Positions 4,209-23,891 of a stretch of DNA of 64,000 nucleotides are shown here, piece after piece. The stretch's first letter is position 1. Every line of letters begins with the position of its first letter. A model generated the notes under the pieces. It was not told where the DNA came from. It saw nothing but the letters and a program-made list of their open reading frames with translations, and ran no database searches. Position numbers and translations under genes: made by a program. This stretch comes from a virus: positions 1-64,000 of IMG/VR virus record IMGVR_UViG_3300007760_001422; one strand, given 5' to 3'.

Positions 4209-5120
4209 CTAATTTAATAGATTAGAAGTTTTATTTAGCTTAACAATTTTCTGCTTATGTTTAAGAGAACAACCATTAGGCACAGTAACCCTTCGATAAT
4301 CCACAATTAATCCATGAGCGATAGATTCTCCATGCTTATGATGGACTCGACCTCCCTTGGTCTTATAATCAGAAGCAGCATTATACTGAGTATGAATTGC
4401 CACATAATTACTAAACCAAAGCTTAAAATCTTTGTCGACCGCAGAACCATCATTAAAAGACGGATGCAACTTGAATAAGAGCGTAGTGCCCTCCAAAAGT
4501 TCACCCTGAATCTTTTCATCGCTCGGCCACGCTTTGTGCAAAAGTTCAGAAGCTAGTTTTACGTTATCTAAACCGTGCTTTGCACATCGGTTAAACGCCC
4601 CAACAGAGATTCGCTTTGAGTTTGGTGCACCAACGGTGCCAAACGTATCAGGAGAGCCATAAACACTCAAACCAGCATAAACAAGCTGATTTTTAGTCTC
4701 TAGTGCTTTCTGGTCTTGTGCAAGAACTTGGTGCACAAAAACTTCATCTTTGTTTGCACTCTTGCGGTTCGACCAGTTAACTTCATAGAAAAGTTTATGA
4801 TATTCCTGTTCGTCTCCAACATCGATACGATAACAAGGCATCTTAGTACGATTTGGAAACACGACTCTGTACATTCCTCGGCGGTGATCACCATCTAAAA
4901 GATATTCATCACCACTAGGAAAGACAGCAATTGTGGGGGGAGTGAACTTTGACCAATCAAAACCATCCTTAAGATATTTCTTAAGTTGGCTGGCCTTTGT
5001 TTCACGATTAACCAGACTCAACACATCCACACTTACTTGGCCCGGTTTACCGGGCTTTCCGAAAATATCGACGTCATTGATTTTTAGAGATTTTACATCT
5101 CCAACTAAAAAATTACTCAT
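4209..5120 (-). CDS. ParB/Srx-superfamily N-terminal domain protein
   Basis: 303 residues. An N-terminal segment with DEYLLDGDHRRGMYR near residues 71-85 resembles the conserved box of ParB-like nuclease domains (xxxGxxRxxA). The preceding PPTIAVFPSG matches the strand that leads into it. The C-terminal half is unassigned. Members include partition proteins, nucleases and phage DNA-binding proteins, so the exact role is open. The ribosome site AAGGAGG is good and overlaps the end of a small upstream ORF. Position between two perfect 33-base repeats suggests recent acquisition or a tandem-duplication remnant. Confidence 0.65.
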   Translation of the reverse strand: MSNFLVGDVKSLKINDVDIFGKPGKPGQVSVDVLSLVNRETKASQLKKYLKDGFDWSKFTPPTIAVFPSGDEYLLDGDHRRGMYRVVFPNRTKMPCYRIDVGDEQEYHKLFYEVNWSNRKSANKDEVFVHQVLAQDQKALETKNQLVYAGLSVYGSPDTFGTVGAPNSKRISVGAFNRCAKHGLDNVKLASELLHKAWPSDEKIQGELLEGTTLLFKLHPSFNDGSAVDKDFKLWFSNYVAIHTQYNAASDYKTKGGRVHHKHGESIAHGLIVDYRRVTVPNGCSLKHKQKIVKLNKTSNLLN

Positions 5121-5122
5121 AA

Positions 5123-5218
5123 TTATTCCTCCTTATGAGCAGCATCTAAGGTTTTGAGGCCAATTGGACTTACACTAGGTACCTTATCACCTAAAATTTG
5201 AGACATCTGTAAACCCAT
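5123..5218 (-). CDS. Small 31-residue ORF upstream of the ParB-like gene
   Basis: Starts inside repeat copy 2 with ribosome site GGGAGG and reads MGLQMSQILGDKVPSV... to a TAA three bases before the ParB-like ATG. Its last codons (AAG GAG GAA) form that gene's ribosome site. This arrangement suits a translated leader or coupling peptide. No homologue recognised. Confidence 0.45.
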   Translation of the reverse strand: MGLQMSQILGDKVPSVSPIGLKTLDAAHKEE

Positions 5219-5230
5219 GCCTCCCTGCGG
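5198..5230 (-). repeat. 33-base perfect direct repeat, copy 2
   Basis: Identical to 4170-4202, 1,028 bases apart. It carries the ribosome site and start of the 31-residue ORF. Confidence 0.9.
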
Positions 5231-5243
5231 CTCTATAAAGAAT

Positions 5244-5603
5244 TTAATAATAGTATCTGCGTGTAACTCTTCTTTTAAGATTGCCTTTTCTATTATATCG
5301 TCTCGTTACAATTCGCTTTCGCACACGATGGTTGTGCCTGTGGTGGCGCACACGATGGTTGTGCTTGTGATATCGTACGCGCTGTCGATGATGGCGACGG
5401 ACACGATGATATCTTTTGTTAACTTGGCCCATATAACGCCTGTAGGTGTTGCTGTGGGTTCTTACCCGAATCACAGATGCCGGAGCGTGTGAAGTATATA
5501 CAACTTCGTGTGGCATATACGCCTCACCCTCATATGCAAACCCTGCAAAGCAGCCCGGGGTGACAAAAAGCGTAGTACCTAGCACTACATATAAAATACA
5601 CAT
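5244..5603 (-). CDS. Secreted, extremely basic His/Arg/Tyr-rich protein
   Basis: 119 residues from the ATG at 5603, chosen because AGGAGGAAAACTACA precedes it; a longer in-frame reading would run into uvsX. Residues 1-22 (MCILYVVLGTTLFVTPGCFAGF) look like a signal peptide, possibly with a lipobox-like Cys. The mature part is dominated by His, Arg, Lys and Tyr, with a tandem unit (HNHRVRHHR then HNHRVRKR) encoded by a short DNA repeat at about 5330-5362. No known domain. It could bind nucleic acid, lipopolysaccharide or metal outside the cytoplasm, all of which is inference. The composition is unlike that of its replication-gene neighbours. Confidence 0.65.
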   Translation of the reverse strand: MCILYVVLGTTLFVTPGCFAGFAYEGEAYMPHEVVYTSHAPASVIRVRTHSNTYRRYMGQVNKRYHRVRRHHRQRVRYHKHNHRVRHHRHNHRVRKRIVTRRYNRKGNLKRRVTRRYYY

Positions 5604-5628
5604 TGTAGTTTTCCTCCTAGAAATATTA

Positions 5629-6762
5629 TTATATATTTGTTGCAATTTGCGTGCCATTTTCTTCATCCTCGTAAAATGCTTCCGCGGAGCCAATTCGTTT
5701 ATCAAATTTCATGATAATTTCTTCATCCATAATAGTTAAAACCCGATTTCGAAACTTTTCTTTCGAAAGCTTCTCTTTCCATTTGGATGCTTGAAACTTT
5801 TCTCGTGTGTCGTCCTCGTAACAAAGCTCATACCATGCACCAGCCTGTTTTAACGAGTCTGAGCCCTTAATCGCATCCAGCCAGCTTTCCTCATCTTGTA
5901 CACCAATCTCGTCACCCCACAAGATTTTAAAATTGCATTGTCTTCCTTGGGTGCCAAAGCGACTCTTCTCAAGTTTTACCTTGACTTCTGATCCCACCCT
6001 AAAGCCTTTATCATCCAGTACGAAAGAAGCCTTTGCCTTGCGCCCAGTGAGCCACACACGCAATGAATAGGCATAAATCATAGCTTTGCCGCCCGGGGTC
6101 ATATAGGGCGTTGTAAGAGCCTCTGAAGGGCTCCTAGTGATATTAGACTTAAGCTGGTTTAGGACCAAAAATGTCGACTGACTATTAGCTATTGGTACCG
6201 TTAATTTTGACATCCCTTTTGCTAAAATTCTAGCCTTTACTGCCATGGATGAAAGTGGATTAAAATCACCCTCAACATCAGAAACTGCTGGCGTTAAAGC
6301 TAGCGAGTCCCAAATAAATAACATTCTATTTTCATTCGCGCCTAGAAGCTCTTCGATTGTCTCTAATACAAATTCAACATTTTGTGCTTGAATATATAGA
6401 ATATTATCGACGTTGCAACCAGCCTTCTCTAGAAAGCCGGGATCAATAGCAGATTCCGAATCAAAATAAATCACATCGATGCCCATTTTTTGAGCGTTGG
6501 CAGCAACTTGGGCGGCCATGTAAGATTTTCCCGTAGATTCTAATCCTGCGATTTCAGTAATTTTTCCAACTGGTATGCCCGCTGCTCTTCCTCGACATAT
6601 AATTGAATCTAGCCAACGTGAGCCAGTAGGAATCCACTCTTTGACAATCGTTGGGCTGTCTTCATTTAGATTATGAGCCACGTTCATTCCAGCTTTTTTA
6701 TTAATAAGCTGTCGCATATCTGCGACCGATAGGCTCCCAACTTTTTGTTTTTTTCTTGCCAT
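5629..6762 (-). CDS. uvsX: UvsX/RecA-like recombinase
   Basis: 377 residues, near the 391 of T4 UvsX. Walker A is AGLESTGKS (about residues 72-80). Preceding text GSRWLDSIICRGRAAGIPVG is the usual RecA-family lead-in. Walker B is RMLFIWDSLALTP near residue 150. An acidic DSES follows the first strand pair. The protein forms filaments on ssDNA and drives strand exchange for recombination-dependent replication. It sits directly downstream of the gp32-like SSB, its functional partner. A hairpin (6780-6806) separates the two genes. Confidence 0.93.
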   Translation of the reverse strand: MARKKQKVGSLSVADMRQLINKKAGMNVAHNLNEDSPTIVKEWIPTGSRWLDSIICRGRAAGIPVGKITEIAGLESTGKSYMAAQVAANAQKMGIDVIYFDSESAIDPGFLEKAGCNVDNILYIQAQNVEFVLETIEELLGANENRMLFIWDSLALTPAVSDVEGDFNPLSSMAVKARILAKGMSKLTVPIANSQSTFLVLNQLKSNITRSPSEALTTPYMTPGGKAMIYAYSLRVWLTGRKAKASFVLDDKGFRVGSEVKVKLEKSRFGTQGRQCNFKILWGDEIGVQDEESWLDAIKGSDSLKQAGAWYELCYEDDTREKFQASKWKEKLSKEKFRNRVLTIMDEEIIMKFDKRIGSAEAFYEDEENGTQIATNI

Positions 6763-6779
6763 AATTTACCTCGATTGAA

Positions 6780-6806
6780 ATTGAGAGGGGCAATGCCCCT
6801 CTCAAT
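6780..6806 (-). terminator. Hairpin between the SSB and uvsX genes (attenuator-like)
   Basis: Perfect inverted repeat TTGAGAGGGGC - AAT - GCCCCTCTCAA, extended by one A-T pair. The downstream strand is AATTTCAATC rather than a true U-run, so partial termination, or 3'-end protection of the abundant SSB message, is more likely than full termination. Confidence 0.55.
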
Positions 6807-6814
6807 ATTAAACT

Positions 6815-7579
6815 TTAAGCATTAATTAATTCATTAAAAGCAGCTTCAACTGAACTTTCTTTTGTTCCTTTGTTGTTGCTTTTATTATAAGCTTGAAGCT
6901 CGGAGGAGACTTCTTCTGCGTCGGTGTCATTCAGGATGAACTCATTGAGCAGAGCAGAAACCTCTTGGGGGGATTTTCTATCGAATAAAGATTCAAAATC
7001 CGGAATGCTCTCAAGCAATTCTGCACAACGCTTGGGATCCATCTCATCGCATAGCGAAGAACTTTTTCTGCGAGGAGTGATCTTTGTTTGTGGGAATGAT
7101 GCGCCCGGAGGCTTTCCATACCCAATTGTAAGATCCGTTCCTGCCTCGACATCTGTAATGTCTCCATATTCAGGATTCAACACTAGACTAAGAAGGTTTT
7201 CATATGCCATCTTGCCGAAGCCCCAAACTTTAACGCCCTCATCCTCTTCGCCGCGCACTAGCACCGGTGTAAAAAACCGTTGGCGCACAAAAAGGTTTTT
7301 GGCCTCTTTGATACTTTCGGTTGTACCGTCTTTATATAGCTTTGTTGCAAAATCGCAGACTGCACAGTCTTCGCCATAATTGCGCTTTGGGCAGAGAAAG
7401 CCCGGGTTTTTGCCAACGTTATAATGGAAATAATAATCCTTAAAAGGATCTCCATCTGCCGTAGGAACAATTCTCACCTTGGTTTCGCCCTCTTGTGGGC
7501 GCCAAAATTGACTACTTTTGCCGCCATTGGACTTTAGGTTAGTCAATCTTTCCCGAATTTTATTTAAATCTAAACTCAT
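6815..7579 (-). CDS. Single-stranded DNA-binding protein, T4 gp32-like
   Basis: 254 residues. A zinc site of the gp32 type is visible: His52, Cys63, Cys72 and Cys75 (FHYNVGKNPGFLCP ... EDCAVCDF). T4 gp32 uses His-Cys-Cys-Cys with similar spacing. The N-terminus (SLDLNKIRERL) matches the basic cooperativity region. The C-terminal part is acidic (NDTDAEEVSSE), as expected for the tail that binds replication partners. The family coats ssDNA during replication and recombination. It lies next to the UvsX gene. Confidence 0.88.
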   Translation of the reverse strand: MSLDLNKIRERLTNLKSNGGKSSQFWRPQEGETKVRIVPTADGDPFKDYYFHYNVGKNPGFLCPKRNYGEDCAVCDFATKLYKDGTTESIKEAKNLFVRQRFFTPVLVRGEEDEGVKVWGFGKMAYENLLSLVLNPEYGDITDVEAGTDLTIGYGKPPGASFPQTKITPRRKSSSLCDEMDPKRCAELLESIPDFESLFDRKSPQEVSALLNEFILNDTDAEEVSSELQAYNKSNNKGTKESSVEAAFNELINA

Positions 7580-7606
7580 AATATTTTTCCTTTTTTTTTG
7601 TAAAAG

Positions 7607-8476
7607 TCAAGACGGCAAATCTTCCGTCCTGCTGTTTTGTTGTACATAAGAGCACTTTGCTACACAGTAAGAATAAGACACATCATATTGCGTAGAATAT
7701 ATACCATATGTTATTTTCATTTTATCATGTTCTGCTCTGCTTTTCACTTGTTTTTTTATTTTATTTAGCAAGCCGCCATCATTGTCAACCACATCATCAG
7801 GTATAGCATAATAATACCTTTTATCTCTAACTTTGTCAAGAGAAAAAAACATTTTTTCTTTTCCGCTTTCAAAGTCAACGATTCCAAAGGTTTGAATGCG
7901 TACTGAAGGGGGCGAATTTGAAAAGGTATCAATGATGGAATCAGAATTTTCAAAGACATTTATCATGTGATAGGTTGAAACAACTACCTCATTAATTCTA
8001 TTGTAATATTCTTTTATGGGCACATCGCCTATTATTTCAGAAACGGTCGCGTTCGAAACAAGATTTATTCTCTCAAAAACACCAGAACGAGCATATTCTT
8101 GCATTACGCCAAACATAAGATTTTCTTGCAGACTTTTCTTCTCGTTTAACAGGCCAAGATCCGGCTTTATATAAAGAATGCTTATTTTATTTTTTTTCTT
8201 TTTTTTAAGTATTTCCAGAGCGCGCAAACAAAGACCAGATATATCGCCACAACTACTTATAAACAAAATATCGCCTTCTATCTTTTTTAAAAAGGGGCGC
8301 ATTTTAAGGATGGAACAATTTTTTTCATATTCTTCGGGGCCGTCATGAGGCAGAACATTAAGGCAATTCTTTCCCTTAATTCCTACATCTATCTTATATA
8401 TTTTATATTGAGAATATTGACTAAATTGGTCCGCCAGATTACACCCGGCGTTTCCTAGTCCTATAATCGATTGCAT
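7607..8476 (-). CDS. Divergent FtsZ/tubulin-like GTPase
   Basis: 289 residues. The N-terminus SIIGLGNAGCNLADQF (residues 3-18) matches the FtsZ T1 nucleotide loop. ILFISSCGDISGLCLRALE (about 70-88) occupies the place of the Gly-rich T4 signature loop but is degenerate. IKPDLGLLNEKKSLQENL (about 103-120) aligns with the FtsZ segment 'PF.FEG.KR...A..G'. INLVSNATVSEIIGDVPIKE followed by NRINEVVVSTYHMINVF (about 137-175) aligns with the FtsZ strand and central helix H7. The canonical GGGTGSG and the T7 NxDxADV are not intact. Phage relatives (PhuZ, TubZ) position DNA or capsids. Here nucleotide binding may be weak or lost. It sits among replication genes and the fold assignment is by eye. Confidence 0.68.
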   Translation of the reverse strand: MQSIIGLGNAGCNLADQFSQYSQYKIYKIDVGIKGKNCLNVLPHDGPEEYEKNCSILKMRPFLKKIEGDILFISSCGDISGLCLRALEILKKKKKNKISILYIKPDLGLLNEKKSLQENLMFGVMQEYARSGVFERINLVSNATVSEIIGDVPIKEYYNRINEVVVSTYHMINVFENSDSIIDTFSNSPPSVRIQTFGIVDFESGKEKMFFSLDKVRDKRYYYAIPDDVVDNDGGLLNKIKKQVKSRAEHDKMKITYGIYSTQYDVSYSYCVAKCSYVQQNSRTEDLPS

Positions 8477-8489
8477 CTAACCGCCTATT

Positions 8490-8837
8490 TTATACTTGTT
8501 CTGGTGGTGTACCTTGTTGTGTTGCGTCGGGGGCCGGTTCAGCATCCGGTGTGGCCGTTGGCTGTTTTTCTTTTTGTTGCATGTCTCGAACCACTGTCGA
8601 CATCGCAGATCTTACATGGCTGGCTTTAAATTTTTCTGGCAAAAAGCTCACAATTAACTCCAGCATTTCTACAAGCTCTTGTGGTGTGTCAACTCTACTA
8701 AAATAATTTGCAAGGCCGGGCACCTTCCCCAGCTTATCACCGACACGCTGGACATCTTTTTGCGTGGCGTCTTCCTCCAGCCCTCTAGAGATTTCTTCTT
8801 TTATGATTTCTTTTAGTCTTGTTTTTGTAATGAGCAT
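8490..8837 (-). CDS. Small protein with N-terminal basic helix (MLITKTRLKEIIKEE)
   Basis: 115 residues. It begins MLITKTRLKEIIKEEISRG, the same type of amphipathic start as the proteins at 141-371 and 35402-36082. The middle is predicted helical (PQELVEMLELIVSFLPEKF) and the C-terminus is a Pro/Ala/Gln-rich linker. GAGGAAAG provides the ribosome site and a CTATTTAT element lies 33 bases upstream. If this is a late gene, the protein may be a virion or prohead component. I-K-E in the start region resembles a T4 gp21 cleavage site (I/L-x-E), which is inference. Confidence 0.65.
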   Translation of the reverse strand: MLITKTRLKEIIKEEISRGLEEDATQKDVQRVGDKLGKVPGLANYFSRVDTPQELVEMLELIVSFLPEKFKASHVRSAMSTVVRDMQQKEKQPTATPDAEPAPDATQQGTPPEQV

Positions 8838-8870
8838 GATACTTTCCTCTTCTATAATAAACTAACTAAT

Positions 8871-8878
8871 ATAAATAG
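8871..8878 (-). promoter_or_regulatory. Putative late promoter element (CTATTTAT)
   Basis: CTATTTAT on the coding strand in the gap between the polymerase stop and the ATG at 8837. It belongs to the set of similar elements upstream of other transcription units. Confidence 0.45.
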
Positions 8879-8898
8879 CGTTTTTAAAAACAAAATGC

Positions 8899-10080
8899 CT
8901 ATATTGCTAATTTTTTCATATCTCCAAAATTTTTTCCCACATTCACATTGACAAGAAAGTTGCCAGTATCAGTTTCAGAAAAAGATTTCTTCAATTTTAA
9001 CAAAATATCCATGTCTTTTTCAGACAAATCTATAACAAGCGAATCGTGTATACAAAACGCAAGATGAGATAACCTACCTTCAAGTAGATTATGAATTTTC
9101 ACAAATTGACGGAGAAAAATTTCTGCGGCGGTGGCTTGTATGATATAGTTTACTGCATGGTATTCGTCAGACTCAATTTCCTTTCCAAACATGGTAGTAA
9201 TCTTTTTTCCATCCCAATATTTTTGTTTAATTACGTCCCTCTTGTACATTCTGTCTGAAAGGTGATCCTTGGCAGCGGGATTATATAGCCAAGCAAATAT
9301 TCGTTCTTTGGCCTTCTCTCTAGTCAGTGAGTTTTTGTATACGTTTTTAATGTTCCACGCATGCAGATCTTCCTTTGGCTGTTTCTGTCCCAACAGGGCT
9401 AGCGCCGTTCGAAGTTCCATGGCGTTATAATCAAACTCCACAAACCAATCGTTTTTGGGGCTTAAGATTGCCCTGTGTTCTTTAGCCAGTGTTAATATTG
9501 GAAAATAGTCTTTTTTACCCGTCAGCCTCCCAGTTTTACTACCAAATACATTATAAGAAACGCGGGGTTTTATTTCTTTTAGTTTCTTGACAAATCTTCT
9601 TGTTTTAAGCCTGTGTAGTTCGCCGGCCAGTGAGGATGCGTCGATATTTAAATCTTGCTGTTCGATATCCGAAACCACCCTTGCGAGCGAAAGCAAGAAT
9701 TCATAATTTGATGGCCGATTATAATTTGTTATAACGTAGTTTGTTAATTTATTTTTAATCTCACAATAATCTTTTACAAAATCTTTGGGCACCAAATCAT
9801 AAAAGCAATGCTCTTTTAAATCTAGACCAACCTCCCTCATTGAACGATAGTAAGCCTTAAGGCGATTATTAATGTTCTCCCACTCTTCTTGCAGGCCCGG
9901 AGGGCACACTTTGTCTAAGGTTTGCCCTCCACAATATAACTTTGCACACTCAACATTTACATTTTTTAAGGCCGGTGAGTAACTCCACGTCTGATTAAAG
10001 TGGGGCTGTAGGTTTTTATAAAATTTTGAATTATGATATATTAAAGGACAGTCTCTGTCTATAATTTGAAATATGGCCAT
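8899..10080 (-). CDS. DNA polymerase family A, polymerase domain only
   Basis: 393 residues. SYNVFGSKTGRLTGKK (about 175-190) is the thumb/palm entry typical of Pol I. Motif A is VEFDYNAMELR (catalytic Asp217). REKAKERIFAWLY (about 254-266) occupies motif B, with Arg, Lys, Phe and Tyr retained. NYIIQATAAEIFLRQ (about 311-325) and motif C CIHDSLV (His345-Asp346) complete the active site. No 3'-5' exonuclease domain is present, so proofreading, if any, must come from another gene. T4-type phages normally use a family B enzyme (gp43), which makes this unusual among T4-like structural genes. It could be the replicase or a repair enzyme. Confidence 0.88.
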   Translation of the reverse strand: MAIFQIIDRDCPLIYHNSKFYKNLQPHFNQTWSYSPALKNVNVECAKLYCGGQTLDKVCPPGLQEEWENINNRLKAYYRSMREVGLDLKEHCFYDLVPKDFVKDYCEIKNKLTNYVITNYNRPSNYEFLLSLARVVSDIEQQDLNIDASSLAGELHRLKTRRFVKKLKEIKPRVSYNVFGSKTGRLTGKKDYFPILTLAKEHRAILSPKNDWFVEFDYNAMELRTALALLGQKQPKEDLHAWNIKNVYKNSLTREKAKERIFAWLYNPAAKDHLSDRMYKRDVIKQKYWDGKKITTMFGKEIESDEYHAVNYIIQATAAEIFLRQFVKIHNLLEGRLSHLAFCIHDSLVIDLSEKDMDILLKLKKSFSETDTGNFLVNVNVGKNFGDMKKLAI

Positions 10081-10092
10081 ATGCGCTCACTA

Positions 10093-11421
10093 TTAATAAC
10101 CAGAAGTAGTTTCATAACTCATTGGACCGGTAGTATATACAAACTCTTCCGATTCCGCAGCAACAGATAGTGCCTCTGCTGCAGCTGCAATCTCCCCTGC
10201 CGAAGATATATCTGCCACTTTTGTCCTATCGATTTCAACTTGTCTTCTGTATTTTGAAACTTTATTTCTTATACTGTCGTCAATATATAACATTATCGTC
10301 CTGTTGTCAATTGTTTTTTTGGCCAAAAGTGATTCAATGTCTTGTAGCGTTTTTTTGTAGTCCTGACGCGTCATGTAACCTTGTAAGCCTTCTTCCATAA
10401 TCCTTAGCTTAAAATAAAAACCACACCAAAACCGAAAACTTAACTTTTCTTCAATTTCATTCTCGGTAATTTTCTTTCGTTCAACCCTGCAAATGACCGT
10501 AGGTTCCCACAATTTACCTTGGGATTTAATTTTTGTCACGTGAGTATTCCTAGAAGAAATATAAGAATCATAAAACAAAAAAGGCATTTCTTTTAAAAGG
10601 GGCAAGTCCTGAATACATGTTTCTTCATAGTAGTTTTCATAAATTTGTTTTACCGTATACGAACCAAAATTTTGTGCCTTTGCGCGGAGGCGCGGGTGTT
10701 TTAAATTTGCTACCAGACGCCACGGGGCATTTTTATCAAGGACAAATCCATGTCTTTTGGCCGCATTTTTGAAAGCATTAAAATTTTTAGATTGCATTTT
10801 TTTCCATTTGACGAGATCGTCTCCATGTTTTGCTCGATCCGAGAAGCCCAAAACCAAGCCGCTGGAGCGCGGATCACAATATTTACTTTTCATTAATGCG
10901 CTCTTTGTGATGGGCACTCCGCTGGCGGCCATGCCGAGCAAAAAGTTCCCAAAGATGTCGAAAAAAATATCAAAATTTGTTATTTTCCCTAAAAGATTTA
11001 ATCTGTCTGCATATACTCCAAAGAAATTTTCATATATCTCTTCAACCAGATCATTATAAATTTTGGTGGGATGGCTGGGTGGCTTGAGTCCGTTTATTGG
11101 AACGACAGCGCCAAAGACATCCAAAGCAGTTAGGCCCGGGGTTTGTCGGTGAAACTCAACAAAGTCTTTATAAGCCGCGGCAACAAAATCTAGTGTATAT
11201 ATCTTTCCCGGGGGTATGGGCGCAATGATATTGTCCCTATCTTGCAAAGCAATGGTGTGACCGGAAGGGCTGGTTCTGCCATACCATGGGCGATCATACC
11301 AATAGTCCATAAGTCGAGTTGGTAGTTCATCTTCGGGCTTTAGGACCTCCTCTTTATAATATTTTCTCTCTTCAAACAGGCGCCTAGTTCCTAATTTATT
11401 TTCTCCTTCCGGTCTTGCCAT
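10093..11421 (-). CDS. Conserved tail/baseplate-region protein of unknown function
   Basis: 442 residues with no recognised domain. Features: Tyr/Trp-rich N-terminus (MDYWYDRPWYGRTSPSG), a central hydrophobic segment around NFDIFFDIFGNFLLGMAASG (about 148-168), a basic middle, and an Ala/Glu-rich C-terminus ending PMSYETTSGY. It has a strong ribosome site (CTAGGAGGAAAC) and follows the large hub-like gene, so a baseplate or tail-tip role is inferred from location. It is also directly upstream of the DNA polymerase gene. Confidence 0.6.
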   Translation of the reverse strand: MARPEGENKLGTRRLFEERKYYKEEVLKPEDELPTRLMDYWYDRPWYGRTSPSGHTIALQDRDNIIAPIPPGKIYTLDFVAAAYKDFVEFHRQTPGLTALDVFGAVVPINGLKPPSHPTKIYNDLVEEIYENFFGVYADRLNLLGKITNFDIFFDIFGNFLLGMAASGVPITKSALMKSKYCDPRSSGLVLGFSDRAKHGDDLVKWKKMQSKNFNAFKNAAKRHGFVLDKNAPWRLVANLKHPRLRAKAQNFGSYTVKQIYENYYEETCIQDLPLLKEMPFLFYDSYISSRNTHVTKIKSQGKLWEPTVICRVERKKITENEIEEKLSFRFWCGFYFKLRIMEEGLQGYMTRQDYKKTLQDIESLLAKKTIDNRTIMLYIDDSIRNKVSKYRRQVEIDRTKVADISSAGEIAAAAEALSVAAESEEFVYTTGPMSYETTSGY

Positions 11422-11460
11422 AAAATTTAAGTTTCCTCCTAGGATTTATTAAGTAATTAT

Positions 11461-14328
11461 TTACTTACAACCAGTTTTGCCTATACTTCTTGGAGCACGC
11501 TGTCGTTTTCCTTCTCTCGCACCAAAAGATTCCCACTTACAATTTAATTTTGTAAAATAGCTCCCGGGCTTCAACTCATGCTCAACCTTTGTAACTAAAA
11601 AATAGCCGCCTAGGCCTAGTCTTCTAGAAGCACTCCGGGCTCTCTTGGGATCTCCAAATGTCGACGGGTTAATAAATATATATTGTCCGGGCAGAAACAA
11701 AGGATTGCCAAAGAGTTCAACGTCAGCGTCATATATTTCTCTAAACATTTCTGGTTCAACATTGTTGACGATTCTGTGAGATCTTAAAAATGGTTGATCA
11801 TTTCTTTTAAATTTAATATTTTTTAACAGGCCCCGGGGACTTCCAATGTGAAAATGATAAACACCTCTCTCAAAATCTCCCTGTTTGTCCCCCGTTAAGA
11901 CACTAGGAGAGAAAGAACTGGCATACAAATAATAATATAATTTTGGCACATTTTTCGGAGGCTTTCCACTTGGATGAGTACTGTATCTTCCCCAACCTCT
12001 TGAAGAACTATAATTAAATTTAACATTTTCCACACAATACCTTTTCCCGCGAAATATATTTGAAGAATCTGCCCATATTTCGGCCGTGTGCACTCTAGCC
12101 GTGGACTTTTGGCCGCCGGCGGTAGCATCGATACACAACGGACCTATACTGCTGGCAACCAAATCTGATATTATATCTTGCAAGAATTCCTTCAGTGGAT
12201 ATTCTTCACGCAGGGGACGAATAACTTTGTCGATAAACCATATGTGAAAAGCATGAAGAGATATTGGTATATCTGCCAAGTTTACGTAATACGGAGTGCC
12301 AGTAAATGGATCTGTCCAAGTGTAGGGGCCAAGTATAAAATTGACCGTATCGGTTTTGCTGTTGTGGAACCCAACAGCATCATTGTTGTTCGCTAGCGTC
12401 ATAAGGGCGGCGTTTATAATATCCCCCAAATATACAAAATGAAACACAGTTTTGCCATCAGAAAGAAACGGCGCCGAAGAGGCAATTGCTTCGCTGCCTG
12501 CTTGTTCGATGCTCGCCTTGCTCATACCATTCGCGGCCGTCTTCACTTTCTTCGCAACATCGGCCGAGGCGCCCTGTACGGCCTTTTTGGCGGCTGCAGC
12601 CTTTTTGCTCCCGGCCTGCTGGACGATGCGCTCTAGTTCCCATGCTCCGGCCATGGCGGGAGTGGTGGCCGTTTTTTTAGCAAGCGTTTTTTTAGCATCA
12701 GAGTCGCCAGCTTTTGCTCTTTTATTTAATTCCGCAGCTGTGCTGTCGGGTAGTTTATCTTTCCTTCCCCCTCTGGCCACAAGGCCCTCGGAACTAAGCT
12801 GCAGTTCAGAGTTGGGCACCTTCATCCTCCATATACCACCAAAGTTTTGTAACTGCTGCAAGAACGTTTCATATTTTTTTCCGCGTTCTTTTTGTGCCTC
12901 CATTCGCATAAAGGAGTGGAAGCTAGCTATGTGTGCCTGCTGGCCCTTTATTTGGCCTTCAAGCTTTTTGCTCTTTGCATTATCTGCTTGATTTGCTGAA
13001 GCGGCCGGCGCGGTGCCCTTGTTACCAGATGTTTTGTTTGATTTGCGGACTTCAGAATCATGATCGCGCTTTGTGCCTTGAACTTTTTTAAGTCGACTTT
13101 GTGCAGCTGCCATGTCTTGCTTCCACTTTGATAGCTTGGTAGAATATTCTTGTGACATTTTAAAAATATCAGTTTCGCCGCGTTTAAGTGCGCCCTCAAT
13201 CCAGCCAGTATAATTTACAGTAAGCTCTATTGCGCCATTTTCTTTAAATTCTAAATCGTGTTTGTGAAGCTCCAGCGCTACTCTTATTTTTGTATCTGCT
13301 ATGGCCTTTCTTAAATTATTATCGATAATATATTTTTCATTGATGTTTTTGTGTGGGACTGTCCATCCAATTTCTGCAAGTATGCGAAAATACCTCTCCG
13401 TGCTCAAGCCACTGGTTGCAGGACTGGCCGATATTCCTCGCGACCAAGCTGTTGAACTCGGCGCCATAATCAAATCTGAATAAGCTATCGTCTGCGCTTC
13501 AGAGGGAGAGTTAAGAGTGGCCCCGGGGGCGATGCCAGCGCGAAGGAAGGTTTCAGCATTTTGAAAAACAAATTTAAGCTCTGCTGATAGAGTCTTGTCG
13601 ACCGGCTTTGTTTGCCCTTCGTTGGTAAATTTAAAGCTTAATAGACCGGCGCCATCCCCTCTCATTTTGCGATCCGAATATACACTCTCAAAGTCTCCAC
13701 CTGTATATCTGTTCTTTTTGTGTTTAGGGTCTGGAAAATGATTACTAAAATGAAATTCCACTGGGGTACCTTTCTTATCGACTGGGCTTGAGTACGCCAC
13801 CTTGTACAAACGAATCTTTGGCTGCAACAAAGAAAAAACCCATGGCTCTATTTCTAGAAAATGTTTAAACTCTTTGCTGTGTAGAATTTTGTTATATATG
13901 AGCGCGCTGTTCCCAGAAAGAGTTGCATAGAAAACAGGATCTGCGACACGGCCGCGGCCAACTTTCGAAATGCACTGGCTTAGGACTTTTTGCATGTTCA
14001 TATACAAAAAGCACTGCTCTTGTACTGCTAGGTTTCTGGCTCTTTCGGCGGTTTTAGCTTCTTCGGCGGCCTTTTGCGCTAGTTCTTCTTCTTTGGATAG
14101 TTTTCCCTTGCCAACCAACACGGTGCGCCCTTCCATTCTTTCATCTACTGCGCTCTTGTCGTGACCAACAACGCTTGCGGCGCCGCGGGTGACATATTCC
14201 ATCCCCTTGACCGCTTCATTGGTCACACTATTGCTTGTAACTGTATCGGTCCAAGAATATAATTTATTACCAATGCCAGCAACTAGCTTGTTCCACTTAT
14301 GAGACCATGGTACATTTTTGTCTGCCAT
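11461..14328 (-). CDS. Large baseplate hub-like / tail protein
   Basis: 955 residues. An N-terminal Ala/Glu/Lys-rich helical segment (SKEEELAQKAAEEAKTAERA) is followed by a mixed domain. A low-complexity Lys/Ala-rich stretch (about 420-640) comes next. The C-terminal domain ends GGYFLVTKVEHELKPGSYFTKL, a pattern seen in baseplate hub and late-control-D type proteins, where the final strand pair closes the hub barrel. It lies between a LysM baseplate protein and the 442-residue protein, downstream of the tape measure, which is where hub genes usually sit. Assignment rests on that order and the C-terminal signature. Confidence 0.55.
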   Translation of the reverse strand: MADKNVPWSHKWNKLVAGIGNKLYSWTDTVTSNSVTNEAVKGMEYVTRGAASVVGHDKSAVDERMEGRTVLVGKGKLSKEEELAQKAAEEAKTAERARNLAVQEQCFLYMNMQKVLSQCISKVGRGRVADPVFYATLSGNSALIYNKILHSKEFKHFLEIEPWVFSLLQPKIRLYKVAYSSPVDKKGTPVEFHFSNHFPDPKHKKNRYTGGDFESVYSDRKMRGDGAGLLSFKFTNEGQTKPVDKTLSAELKFVFQNAETFLRAGIAPGATLNSPSEAQTIAYSDLIMAPSSTAWSRGISASPATSGLSTERYFRILAEIGWTVPHKNINEKYIIDNNLRKAIADTKIRVALELHKHDLEFKENGAIELTVNYTGWIEGALKRGETDIFKMSQEYSTKLSKWKQDMAAAQSRLKKVQGTKRDHDSEVRKSNKTSGNKGTAPAASANQADNAKSKKLEGQIKGQQAHIASFHSFMRMEAQKERGKKYETFLQQLQNFGGIWRMKVPNSELQLSSEGLVARGGRKDKLPDSTAAELNKRAKAGDSDAKKTLAKKTATTPAMAGAWELERIVQQAGSKKAAAAKKAVQGASADVAKKVKTAANGMSKASIEQAGSEAIASSAPFLSDGKTVFHFVYLGDIINAALMTLANNNDAVGFHNSKTDTVNFILGPYTWTDPFTGTPYYVNLADIPISLHAFHIWFIDKVIRPLREEYPLKEFLQDIISDLVASSIGPLCIDATAGGQKSTARVHTAEIWADSSNIFRGKRYCVENVKFNYSSSRGWGRYSTHPSGKPPKNVPKLYYYLYASSFSPSVLTGDKQGDFERGVYHFHIGSPRGLLKNIKFKRNDQPFLRSHRIVNNVEPEMFREIYDADVELFGNPLFLPGQYIFINPSTFGDPKRARSASRRLGLGGYFLVTKVEHELKPGSYFTKLNCKWESFGAREGKRQRAPRSIGKTGCK

Positions 14329-20930: not shown

Positions 20931-23891
20931 CTAGTCCTCAAACGCCGCTCCATCGTTTGTAATTACAAAATCAATTGCAATAAATTCAATAGCTTTAGCC
21001 GGTTTCAAGAAAATCTTTGCATACATAATATTTCTGTCAACAAGATCCGGTGTAGTGGTTGTTTCATCCAACACTATTTTATAATTTTCCAAACCTTGAT
21101 TGGCTTTAATATTTGCCAAGAATGGCTCCACTTGACCTCTAAATCTTGCCCACGTTGTTCGCGTATTCTGCGCGAACAATAATCTAGATGCAATTCTAGA
21201 AATTTCTTTTTTCACAAGTACCATCAGGCGGCGAACATTAATTCTGTCGAGCGCCGACAATGATGCCTGTAAAGTTTTCTGGCCAAAAATAACAACTCCT
21301 TCCGCCGGGAAAGTGGCAATAGGATTGATATTGTTTTCATATAATTTGTCTCTTTCGCTGGACTTTAGCTTCTCTCGCGTCTGTACAACCGGCAACCCTG
21401 CCGCGCCTTCAGACAAGCCACCTCTGGTGAAGCCGGCGGGTGCGAACCACGCTGCTGAATTGGCCTCGGCACTGCCCATGACACCAAGCGCCACAACTGA
21501 TGGCGGTACCCAAACAAGCGCATTATTCAGTGAGTCGCGAATCTGCACCCACGGATAGTAACAACAGCCATAGCTGTTATTCAGCTTTCTCGCTTTAATG
21601 TTGGTGACCGCGGTGGAAACGCTACCAAGCCTGTTTTCAGGATCCGATGAGGATTCTGCAGCTGTCTGATATCCCGTGTCCAAGTCAATAATCGCTAGTG
21701 CGTCCGCTCTGTCCTCGCACGTATCGAGCAATCTAGAGGTTAAGGACTCGTTGTATATACCGGGCATGGCAGCCAAGTTATATTCAACATCTTCGGGATT
21801 TGATATCGTATCAATTGCCCTCTTAATCGTATAATAAGCGTAGCTAGAAAGCTCATTGGAGGCCGCTTTTGTGGTTGTGTTATTAAAGGGATCTGCCTCT
21901 TTAATATTAACACCTTGCGAGCCGCCATGGAACACCGTAGTGAATTGATCAAAACCGGCATCTATAATGTTTTGATAGCCGCCGCCTGCAGCGTTCTTCG
22001 ATGTACCATCGTGGTAAGAACCAGAAATGTACCATGCTTTCGCCGGCGAAGAACCTGTGGTGCTACCGCTAACATCATCAAGCGTGAAATACCACGATGA
22101 TTCTACACACGATGTTGAGTCCGTGATGCTTGATGGTAGCGTTCGAACGATATCCTGAACGCTGCGCGCATATCTAGTCTTATTTGCATTCGGAGATGAA
22201 CCATGTATCGACAAGTCCACACCAAAGAATGTTTTTGTCTCGTCGCCCAGATCCAAATCGGCACTGTTTGAGCGAAGAGGAATTGTCGGGAAAACAAATG
22301 AAGCTGTAACATTTCTATTGTCCCCCCATGTGCCAGAGATGAAGCCATATTGACTTGCTCCTTCGGACACACCATATCCACCAACATTTGGTATGTCATC
22401 GTGGCCAACCACGAACGTTTGTGCGCTAGCGGAAGTGGCATGCTCCGAGCCAAGAAGAAGGGCAGTTGTTGAGCCTGTCTGATCGTTAACAGTCACCTGA
22501 CTACCAGAGCCGATTGATGTAAAGCCTTTAAATCTTGGAGGACCATATACGCCAAATGGTAAACACTCTGCATTTATTTTACCGTCAGCAACATCGCCGT
22601 TAACTTCGACCCTGACTCTCTTGGATACATTGGGCCAGTCGCCAAACTCGCGTAATCTTTGTTCTGTATCGTCCCACGTAGTATATTTTGTACCAATTTT
22701 TCTTCCAACATAATTAATTGAATTCGGGTTCAAATTACACTGCGTATATCGCTCAATGTTTCGTGGGCGTTTGTCCGTATCTGACATGCGCCGGATAGAT
22801 AAAGTGAACGTACCATACGCGTCCACATCTTGATTGGGAGAGGGCTTGATGTCCGAAATGGAAACCTTAACATTGTTTTGGTCCCACGTGCCCGGGCTCA
22901 AACACACCAACCTGAAGAGTTTTTGCATGTTTTGTGGATTATATGATGCCGTATCGTTGGTGAGATCCTGTGAAAAGAACCAACCGGTTCTTGCTTCCTC
23001 TGCATCTTTTTGTACAATACCCTTGTTAGCGCTGCCACTCTGCAGGGCCAAAATAACACCGAATTGTTGGCCGGCACTGGAGCCGGTTACGGTGGCGTTA
23101 ACATAGTCTTCATACGTCTCGCCAAGCCAATAAGTTTTAGCGGTGCCCTTGGTCACAGTGCTGTTAGTGAGCGTAGGGTTGGTGTTAAAAACTTTACGAA
23201 TAAATTTATCAGAATTTATATTAAAGTTAAAGGAGTGATCGACAAAATTTGTTACAGTTCCGTTCGCACCACCCGTATCAATTTGAAGTTTGAATTCTTT
23301 ATCTGCGCCTTGGGTTTGAACCCACGTGGCGGCGCGAGCGGCAGAAACTGCAGCGGCGTTGCCAAATGATTCGCCGGTTGTACCAGATAGTCTGATGCTT
23401 CCGGTTTCCAGATACCACACGGCTGCAAGGGTGCCTGTTAAATTTGATGTTGCGCTGCCGCTATCAATAATAAACAAGCCGTATGCACCACCATTAGAGC
23501 CAGAGGTGGTGGTGGCGGTGGAATTCGCTGTCTCCCAACCGGCCTCACCTTGATCTGCTGTATAATTTGTGTGTGCATAACCCAACAATCTCACTATAGT
23601 TACTGGGTTGTTGTTTTTTAAGTAGGCTTGTGCAGCATAAGATGCATAAGTGGGCGCTAGTGATTGTCCGTTTCTCCAAATATCAGTTCCGCCGAGCCCT
23701 GCTTCTGGTTCTCCAAAAATTTCTACAAATTCTGAAAACGACTGTACGGTAATCGGCTTCATAGCTGGGCCGCGGGTTGTGCGTCCGATGATTACTGGAC
23801 CCATTCGCGCGGGTGCAGATTCGATCTGTGATTGATCGATTTCATCGATGAAAACTCCGGGCGAAACAAACTTAAATTTTTTAACAGACAT
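20931..23891 (-). CDS. Contractile tail sheath protein, T4 gp18-like
   Basis: 986 residues, clearly longer than T4 gp18 (659), with the extra length in the middle. The N-terminus VSPGVFIDEIDQSQIE and SAPARMGPVIIGRTTRGPA is the sheath family opening. AYLKNNNPVTIVRLLGY follows near residue 100. The conserved C-terminal core has VVQTREKLKSSERDKLYENN, NPIATFPAEGVVIFGQKTL, DRINVRRLMVLVKKEI and a final beta region (PAKAIEFIAIDFVI). Sheath rings contract to drive the tube through the host envelope. The Ser/Thr/Gly-rich insertion (about residues 110-600) is probably surface-exposed. Confidence 0.95.
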   Translation of the reverse strand: MSVKKFKFVSPGVFIDEIDQSQIESAPARMGPVIIGRTTRGPAMKPITVQSFSEFVEIFGEPEAGLGGTDIWRNGQSLAPTYASYAAQAYLKNNNPVTIVRLLGYAHTNYTADQGEAGWETANSTATTTSGSNGGAYGLFIIDSGSATSNLTGTLAAVWYLETGSIRLSGTTGESFGNAAAVSAARAATWVQTQGADKEFKLQIDTGGANGTVTNFVDHSFNFNINSDKFIRKVFNTNPTLTNSTVTKGTAKTYWLGETYEDYVNATVTGSSAGQQFGVILALQSGSANKGIVQKDAEEARTGWFFSQDLTNDTASYNPQNMQKLFRLVCLSPGTWDQNNVKVSISDIKPSPNQDVDAYGTFTLSIRRMSDTDKRPRNIERYTQCNLNPNSINYVGRKIGTKYTTWDDTEQRLREFGDWPNVSKRVRVEVNGDVADGKINAECLPFGVYGPPRFKGFTSIGSGSQVTVNDQTGSTTALLLGSEHATSASAQTFVVGHDDIPNVGGYGVSEGASQYGFISGTWGDNRNVTASFVFPTIPLRSNSADLDLGDETKTFFGVDLSIHGSSPNANKTRYARSVQDIVRTLPSSITDSTSCVESSWYFTLDDVSGSTTGSSPAKAWYISGSYHDGTSKNAAGGGYQNIIDAGFDQFTTVFHGGSQGVNIKEADPFNNTTTKAASNELSSYAYYTIKRAIDTISNPEDVEYNLAAMPGIYNESLTSRLLDTCEDRADALAIIDLDTGYQTAAESSSDPENRLGSVSTAVTNIKARKLNNSYGCCYYPWVQIRDSLNNALVWVPPSVVALGVMGSAEANSAAWFAPAGFTRGGLSEGAAGLPVVQTREKLKSSERDKLYENNINPIATFPAEGVVIFGQKTLQASLSALDRINVRRLMVLVKKEISRIASRLLFAQNTRTTWARFRGQVEPFLANIKANQGLENYKIVLDETTTTPDLVDRNIMYAKIFLKPAKAIEFIAIDFVITNDGAAFED

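What the first reader, a model, noticed from the sequence alone, without database searches (positions are those of the whole stretch)
7607..8476. Divergent FtsZ/tubulin-like protein in a T4-type phage
The N-terminal GLGNAGCN loop, a segment aligning with the FtsZ 'PF.FEG.KR...A..G' region, the IxLVSN strand and a long helix IKEYYNRINEVVVSTYHMI follow FtsZ order. The Gly-rich signature loop is replaced by SSCGDISG. Phage tubulins known to me come mainly from jumbo phages and plasmid-like phages. A copy among SSB and polymerase genes of a T4-type phage, with altered GTP loops, could be a cytoskeletal element for DNA positioning or an inhibitor of host FtsZ.
Basis: partly seen in the sequence, partly recalled or inferred. 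Interest (0 to 1): 0.8.

Follow-up and report, generated by a model that had tools for sequence, protein, structure and literature searches.

The report
Degenerate tubulin-like protein beside phage polymerase
A large group of uncultured T4-like phages carries, between its DNA polymerase and single-strand-binding protein genes, a protein with the fold of the cell-division protein FtsZ that lacks the residues FtsZ uses to split GTP, which suggests a tubulin relative reused as a fixed part of the phage replication set.

Summary
AlphaFold2 gives a confident model (pLDDT 93.6), and all 50 listed PDB matches are FtsZ or TubZ (best E 3.9e-13, TM mostly 0.6-0.7). Sequence evidence alone is weak: Pfam Tubulin hits 11 of 46 members, and profile comparisons with FtsZ or PhuZ are no better than controls.

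The family (here called FtsZL) has hundreds of relatives in IMG/VR; none was detected in 50,697 phage records or 84,980 cellular genomes. In its clade it behaves as a core gene: it is present in 77 of 77 loci that were fetched without it as bait and hold both the polymerase and gp32. Its start lies a median of 1 nt from the polymerase stop, and dN/dS is about 0.12.

Guanine-recognition positions are kept (N142, aromatic 158, N162). The catalytic T7 aspartates are not conserved, the T4 loop is altered, and one subfamily has lost more of the phosphate loops. I read it as a hydrolysis-defective tubulin-fold component of the replication module; that mechanism is inferred. A canonical second phage FtsZ family occurs in related phages, independently of it. 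'Inhibitor of host FtsZ' remains possible but untested.

The parts
7607..8476 (-). FtsZL, 289 aa tubulin/FtsZ-fold protein
   Evidence: ORF; model pLDDT 93.6; PDB fold matches FtsZ/TubZ; family of hundreds
8438..8461 (-). T1 nucleotide loop GLGNAGCN (residues 6-13)
   Evidence: G6, G8 and G11 in 133 of 134 rows; changed in part in the divergent subfamily
8234..8254 (-). T4 loop SCGDISG (residues 75-81), replaces FtsZ GGGTGTG
   Evidence: alignment and column counts
7949..8053 (-). T6 Asn N142 and helix H7 (154-176) with aromatic 158 and N162, guanine-recognition positions
   Evidence: N142 and N162 each 131 of 134; helix in the model
7904..7948 (-). T7 region (residues 177-191) without conserved catalytic acids
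   Evidence: no column above 53% acid; 27 of 134 members with no acid
7652..7897 (-). C-terminal domain (residues 194-275)
   Evidence: strands and helix in the model
8899..10080 (-). family-A DNA polymerase C-terminal part, upstream neighbour
   Evidence: Pfam DNA_pol_A E 2.3e-14; neighbour in 126 loci
8490..8837 (-). 115-aa ORF between polymerase and FtsZL in the window
   Evidence: absent between the two genes in most relatives
6815..7579 (-). gp32-like single-strand-binding protein, downstream neighbour
   Evidence: Pfam gp32 E 3.7e-12; neighbour in 131 of 131 loci with room
5629..6762 (-). UvsX/RecA recombinase
   Evidence: PHROG UvsX E 7.8e-52, Pfam RecA E 1e-34

Best explanation
FtsZL is a tubulin/FtsZ-fold protein that has become a constant part of the replication gene block of a clade of T4-like phages. 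It probably still binds a guanine nucleotide, because the base-recognition positions are kept, but it does not carry the FtsZ catalytic aspartates, so a dynamic treadmilling filament is unlikely. The most likely role is a nucleotide-dependent scaffold or switch that works with the phage polymerase, gp32 and UvsX, for example gathering or tethering replication complexes. Shown by computation: predicted fold, conservation, fixed gene order, close spacing to the polymerase gene, purifying selection, lack of conserved T7 acids. Inferred: nucleotide binding, lack of hydrolysis, the replication role.
For: Fold: pLDDT 93.6 and FtsZ/TubZ in all 50 listed PDB matches. Context: gp32 downstream in 131 of 131 loci with room, polymerase upstream in 126; 77 of 77 loci fetched with polymerase or gp32 as bait, and holding both, also hold FtsZL. 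Polymerase stop to FtsZL start median 1 nt, 82 of 116 within -20 to +10; dN/dS 0.115. Residues: N142, N162 and position 158 conserved; no conserved acid in T7; phosphate-loop changes in a subfamily while base-recognition positions stay. FtsZ mutants D46A, D210N and D213N do not assemble (PMC8936486).
Against: No direct link to replication beyond gene order. T7 mapping rests on a distant alignment and the predicted helix end. Predicted structure only. Beta-tubulin-like cases (general knowledge) show that lack of a T7 acid in one subunit does not exclude polymers.
Confidence: 0.42

Rival explanations
1. Inhibitor of host FtsZ: FtsZL docks on host FtsZ filament ends through its nucleotide face and caps them, because its own T7 face cannot take part in the next contact.
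For: FtsZ fold with kept T1 and base-recognition positions but no T7 acids. Phage-coded FtsZ inhibitors are known, such as lambda Kil and P1 Icd (titles and abstracts PMC3961180, PMC11897509).
Against: Sequence no closer to FtsZ than controls by profile. Core, replication-linked gene in every locus checked, unlike typical small accessory inhibitors. The divergent subfamily has also lost the T2 Asp and other phosphate-loop residues of the supposed docking face.
Confidence: 0.2
2. A filament-forming phage cytoskeleton that places DNA or replication sites, like PhuZ or TubZ, with an unusual or slow GTP cycle.
For: Two-domain tubulin fold; nucleotide pocket positions partly kept; PhuZ-like T1 stretch by eye.
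Against: T7 catalytic acids not conserved; no iteron array near the gene; nuclear shell protein of phiKZ not detected in long contigs, though that search had no positive control.
Confidence: 0.17
3. One half of a two-tubulin system with the second, canonical phage FtsZ family (alignment A2).
For: Seven of the long contigs examined carry both families.
Against: FtsZL without A2 in contigs of 184-190 kb (G001, G003, G004), and A2 without FtsZL in contigs of 142-281 kb that do include gp32. Contigs may be incomplete.
Confidence: 0.05
4. Not a tubulin relative but a Rossmann-type nucleotide-binding enzyme sharing the GxGxxG loop.
For: Pfam TrkA_N matches 6 of 46 members, best E 6.8e-6, better than the best Tubulin E-value.
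Against: All 50 listed PDB matches are FtsZ or TubZ along the full length; the long H7 helix, C-terminal domain and T6/H7 asparagines fit tubulin.
Confidence: 0.03

Closest known systems
FtsZ (bacterial cell-division GTPase, PF00091/TIGR00065)
   Same: Two-domain fold; T1 glycines, T6 Asn, aromatic at the F183 position
   Different: Altered T4 loop, no conserved T7 aspartates, no H8 helix in the model, no C-terminal tail for division partners; sequence similarity at control level
PhuZ / phiKZ TubZ (jumbo phage tubulin)
   Same: Phage-coded tubulin fold; similar T1/T2 stretch by eye
   Different: PhuZ has a C-terminal helix and acidic tail used in polymerisation and a T7 catalytic aspartate (PMC3678025); found in jumbo phages, not in this replication block
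TubZ (plasmid and phage partition tubulin)
   Same: Fold match to TubZ-Bt, E 5.4e-11
   Different: TubZ is larger and works with TubR and a repeat centromere (general knowledge); no repeat array found here
FtsZ-annotated proteins of uncultured phages (BFVD A0A6J5RW92, A0A8S5UFG9)
   Same: Best viral fold matches (E 3.1e-12, TMq 0.77)
   Different: Only 10-14% identical and longer; they match the second family (A2) better (E 9.1e-24)
Second phage FtsZ family found here (alignment A2)
   Same: FtsZ superfamily, related phages, partly the same contigs
   Different: Intact GGGGGTGS and FDSKD motifs, N-terminal DFDF motif, matched by Pfam Tubulin in 34 of 34; lies elsewhere in the genome

Membership tests
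Tubulin/FtsZ superfamily (fold) | Two-domain tubulin fold with central helix H7 | tested here: met
   AlphaFold2 pLDDT 93.6; all 50 listed PDB matches FtsZ/TubZ, best E 3.9e-13
Tubulin/FtsZ superfamily (sequence) | Match to Pfam PF00091 above its cut-off | tested here: not met
   11 of 46 members match, best E 1.9e-4; no match over the 33-bit cut-off in the genome searches; profile comparison no better than reversed controls
Tubulin/FtsZ superfamily | Glycine-rich signature GGGTGT/SG in T4 | tested here: not met
   [S/G][C/S]GxISG instead
Tubulin/FtsZ superfamily | Guanine-recognition residues in T6 and H7 | tested here: met
   N142 131/134, N162 131/134, aromatic or His at 158 132/134; equivalences by alignment
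FtsZ / PhuZ / TubZ | Catalytic acids in loop T7 | tested here: not met
   No T7 column above 53% acid; 27 of 134 members have none
FtsZ / PhuZ / TubZ | GTP binding, GTP hydrolysis and polymerisation | not testable with these tools
   needs biochemistry
PhuZ | C-terminal helix and acidic tail | tested here: not met
   Model ends in a strand at 275 and a short disordered tail; PhuZ feature from PMC3678025
PhuZ | Nucleus-forming phage with nuclear shell protein | tested here: inconclusive
   phiKZ shell protein found no match in 11 long contigs, without a positive control
TubZRC partition system | Repeat centromere and TubR next to the tubulin gene | tested here: inconclusive
   No iteron array at 5000-11500; TubR not searched for

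The most novel reading that the evidence does not exclude
A pseudo-tubulin: a tubulin-fold protein without the FtsZ catalytic aspartates that serves as an obligate accessory of a viral replisome, rather than as a filament for segregation, division or spindle formation.
Probability: 0.3. Interest if true: 0.82.

Novelty: new variant of a known kind. Interest (0 to 1): 0.62.

Why it matters
Known phage tubulins (PhuZ, TubZ) are filament proteins of jumbo or plasmid-like phages. A clade-wide tubulin-fold gene in T4-like phages, tied to the polymerase-gp32-UvsX block and without conserved catalytic acids, would widen what the tubulin fold is used for. It makes directly testable the idea that a tubulin relative takes part in phage DNA replication. 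More distant T4-like phages that have the block without the gene, some of them with a canonical FtsZ, give a natural comparison.

Tried and rejected
Single-sequence searches against Pfam, PHROGs, PDB sequences and phage records gave no usable match; scattered weak PHROG hits of single members were ignored. Profile-profile alignment with FtsZ, PhuZ and family 2 was not significant, so I do not claim which known family is closest by sequence. The Rossmann reading, raised by TrkA_N hits, was rejected on fold. An obligate pair with family 2 was rejected on independent occurrence. A partition system was looked for through repeats and not supported; the ParB-like neighbour at 4209-5120 was recognised in only a few of the loci examined. 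No paper found describes the family; the Far-T4 paper holds no mention of FtsZ or tubulin and the huge-phage paper mentions only PhuZ. TubZ yardsticks on toxin-bearing plasmids or phages were left out; one look-up of such a phage record returned nothing and was dropped. Host: only hints. The terminase is nearest to Flavobacterium phage immuto (46%) and Microcystis phage Mel-JY01 (43%), and family 2 occurs in contigs binned with Flavobacteriales and one Halobacteriovorax.

Full report
Observation. The reported ORF exists at 7607-8476 on the minus strand, 289 codons from ATG. It ends 27 nt before a gp32-like SSB gene (6815-7579), followed by a UvsX/RecA gene (5629-6762). Upstream lie a 115-aa ORF and the C-terminal part of a family-A DNA polymerase (8899-10080). 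The rest of the window carries T4-type terminase, portal, capsid and sheath genes. The record is a virus contig of 131,445 bases.

Family. No relative was found by tblastn in 50,697 phage records or by a pattern-seeded profile scan in 84,980 cellular genomes. A 46-member alignment (A1) has a mean column identity of 51%.

Fold. Alignment A1 gives an AlphaFold2 model with mean pLDDT 93.6 and pTM 0.91. Foldseek against the PDB lists FtsZ or TubZ in all of its first 50 rows, best E 3.9e-13, TM mostly 0.6-0.7, with alignments that span both domains. Against viral predicted structures the best match is an FtsZ-annotated protein of an uncultured phage (E 3.1e-12, TMq 0.77). By sequence the support is thin. 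Pfam Tubulin hits 11 of 46 members (best E 1.9e-4), and a Rossmann family, TrkA_N, reaches 6.8e-6 and hits 6 members, presumably through the shared GxGxxG loop. Pairwise profile comparison with FtsZ gave P 0.01, with PhuZ 0.018 and with family 2 0.086. Reversed-profile controls reached 0.001, while PhuZ against FtsZ gave 1.3e-5. So the membership claim rests on structure.

Pocket and T7. Mapping by joint alignment and secondary structure shows the T1 glycines G6, G8 and G11 in 133 of 134 rows, Asn at the T6 position (N142) in 131, Asn at the FtsZ D187 / tubulin N228 position (N162) in 131, and an aromatic residue or His at the FtsZ F183 position (158) in 132. The FtsZ and tubulin equivalents come from general knowledge plus the alignment. 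The T4 signature is changed. In the T7 region (177-191) no column holds an acid in more than 53% of members, and 27 of 134 members have none. FtsZ T7 carries two catalytic aspartates, and D46A, D210N and D213N suppress S. aureus FtsZ assembly (PMC8936486). In a divergent subfamily phosphate-loop positions change too (G11 to A, C12 to S, D30 to N, G81 to N), while N142, N162, Q126, R130, S131 and H170 stay nearly invariant. This pattern looks like a protein that no longer needs a hydrolysis cycle.

Gene context. In loci fetched with FtsZL as bait, the polymerase is the upstream neighbour in 126 and gp32 the downstream neighbour in all 131 with room. To avoid the bait bias I fetched loci with the polymerase and with a divergent gp32. 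All 77 that hold both genes also hold FtsZL. The polymerase stop and the FtsZL start are a median of 1 nt apart, 82 of 116 within -20 to +10, which suggests translational coupling; in the window itself the 115-aa ORF lies between them. Median dN/dS is 0.115 for FtsZL, 0.061 for gp32, 0.046 for UvsX and 0.098 for the polymerase. More distant T4-like phages have the gp32-RecA/UvsX block without FtsZL: the cultured Flavobacterium phage immuto and Microcystis phage Mel-JY01, and several IMG/VR contigs whose slot between polymerase and gp32 holds other ORFs.

A second phage FtsZ. A Pfam Tubulin search of the long contigs found a separate 346-364 aa protein with an intact GGGGGTGS motif and an invariant FDSKD-type T7. 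It has over 100 relatives in IMG/VR, matches Pfam Tubulin in 34 of 34 members and matches FtsZ-family chains in the PDB by sequence. It was not found in the record that holds the window, which may be a fragment. Among long contigs some carry both families and some only one, so they do not form an obligate pair.

Interpretation. The fold is close to settled. Function is inferred from context and residue loss. A replication-linked scaffold or switch fits the fixed place and the missing catalytic acids best (0.42). A host FtsZ capper remains open (0.2), and so does a filament with an unusual cycle (0.17). I rate it a new variant of a known kind: a phage tubulin-superfamily protein that is catalytically degenerate, clade-wide and replication-linked.

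Noticed in passing
L154:1027-2121 (-), L155:988-2028 (-), alignment A2: A second, canonical phage FtsZ family with intact T4 and T7 motifs and an N-terminal DFDF motif, in over 100 IMG/VR contigs up to 281 kb; not matched in the phage records searched. It may be the more conventional phage cytoskeleton.
   Followed up: partly
window 6775-6811: A near-perfect hairpin of two 18-nt arms between the gp32 and UvsX genes (12-pair stem, -24.5 kcal/mol for the stretch, z -4.95) with no clear T run; perhaps a processing or attenuation site.
   Followed up: partly
window 4209-5120 (-): ParB-like protein (PHROG E 0.018) after UvsX, recognised in only a few of the relatives examined.
   Followed up: no
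L154:2158-2871 (-): A 237-aa ORF next to the second FtsZ looks, by eye only, like a phage sigma factor of the gp55 kind.
   Followed up: no
window 8490-8837 (-); ORFs in L248-L254: Small ORFs near the polymerase share an N-terminal pattern like IRRxLxEE in related phages; function unknown.
   Followed up: no
window 20931-23891 (-): Tail sheath of 986 aa, far longer than the 496-position family profile it matches end to end, so probably with a large insertion.
   Followed up: no
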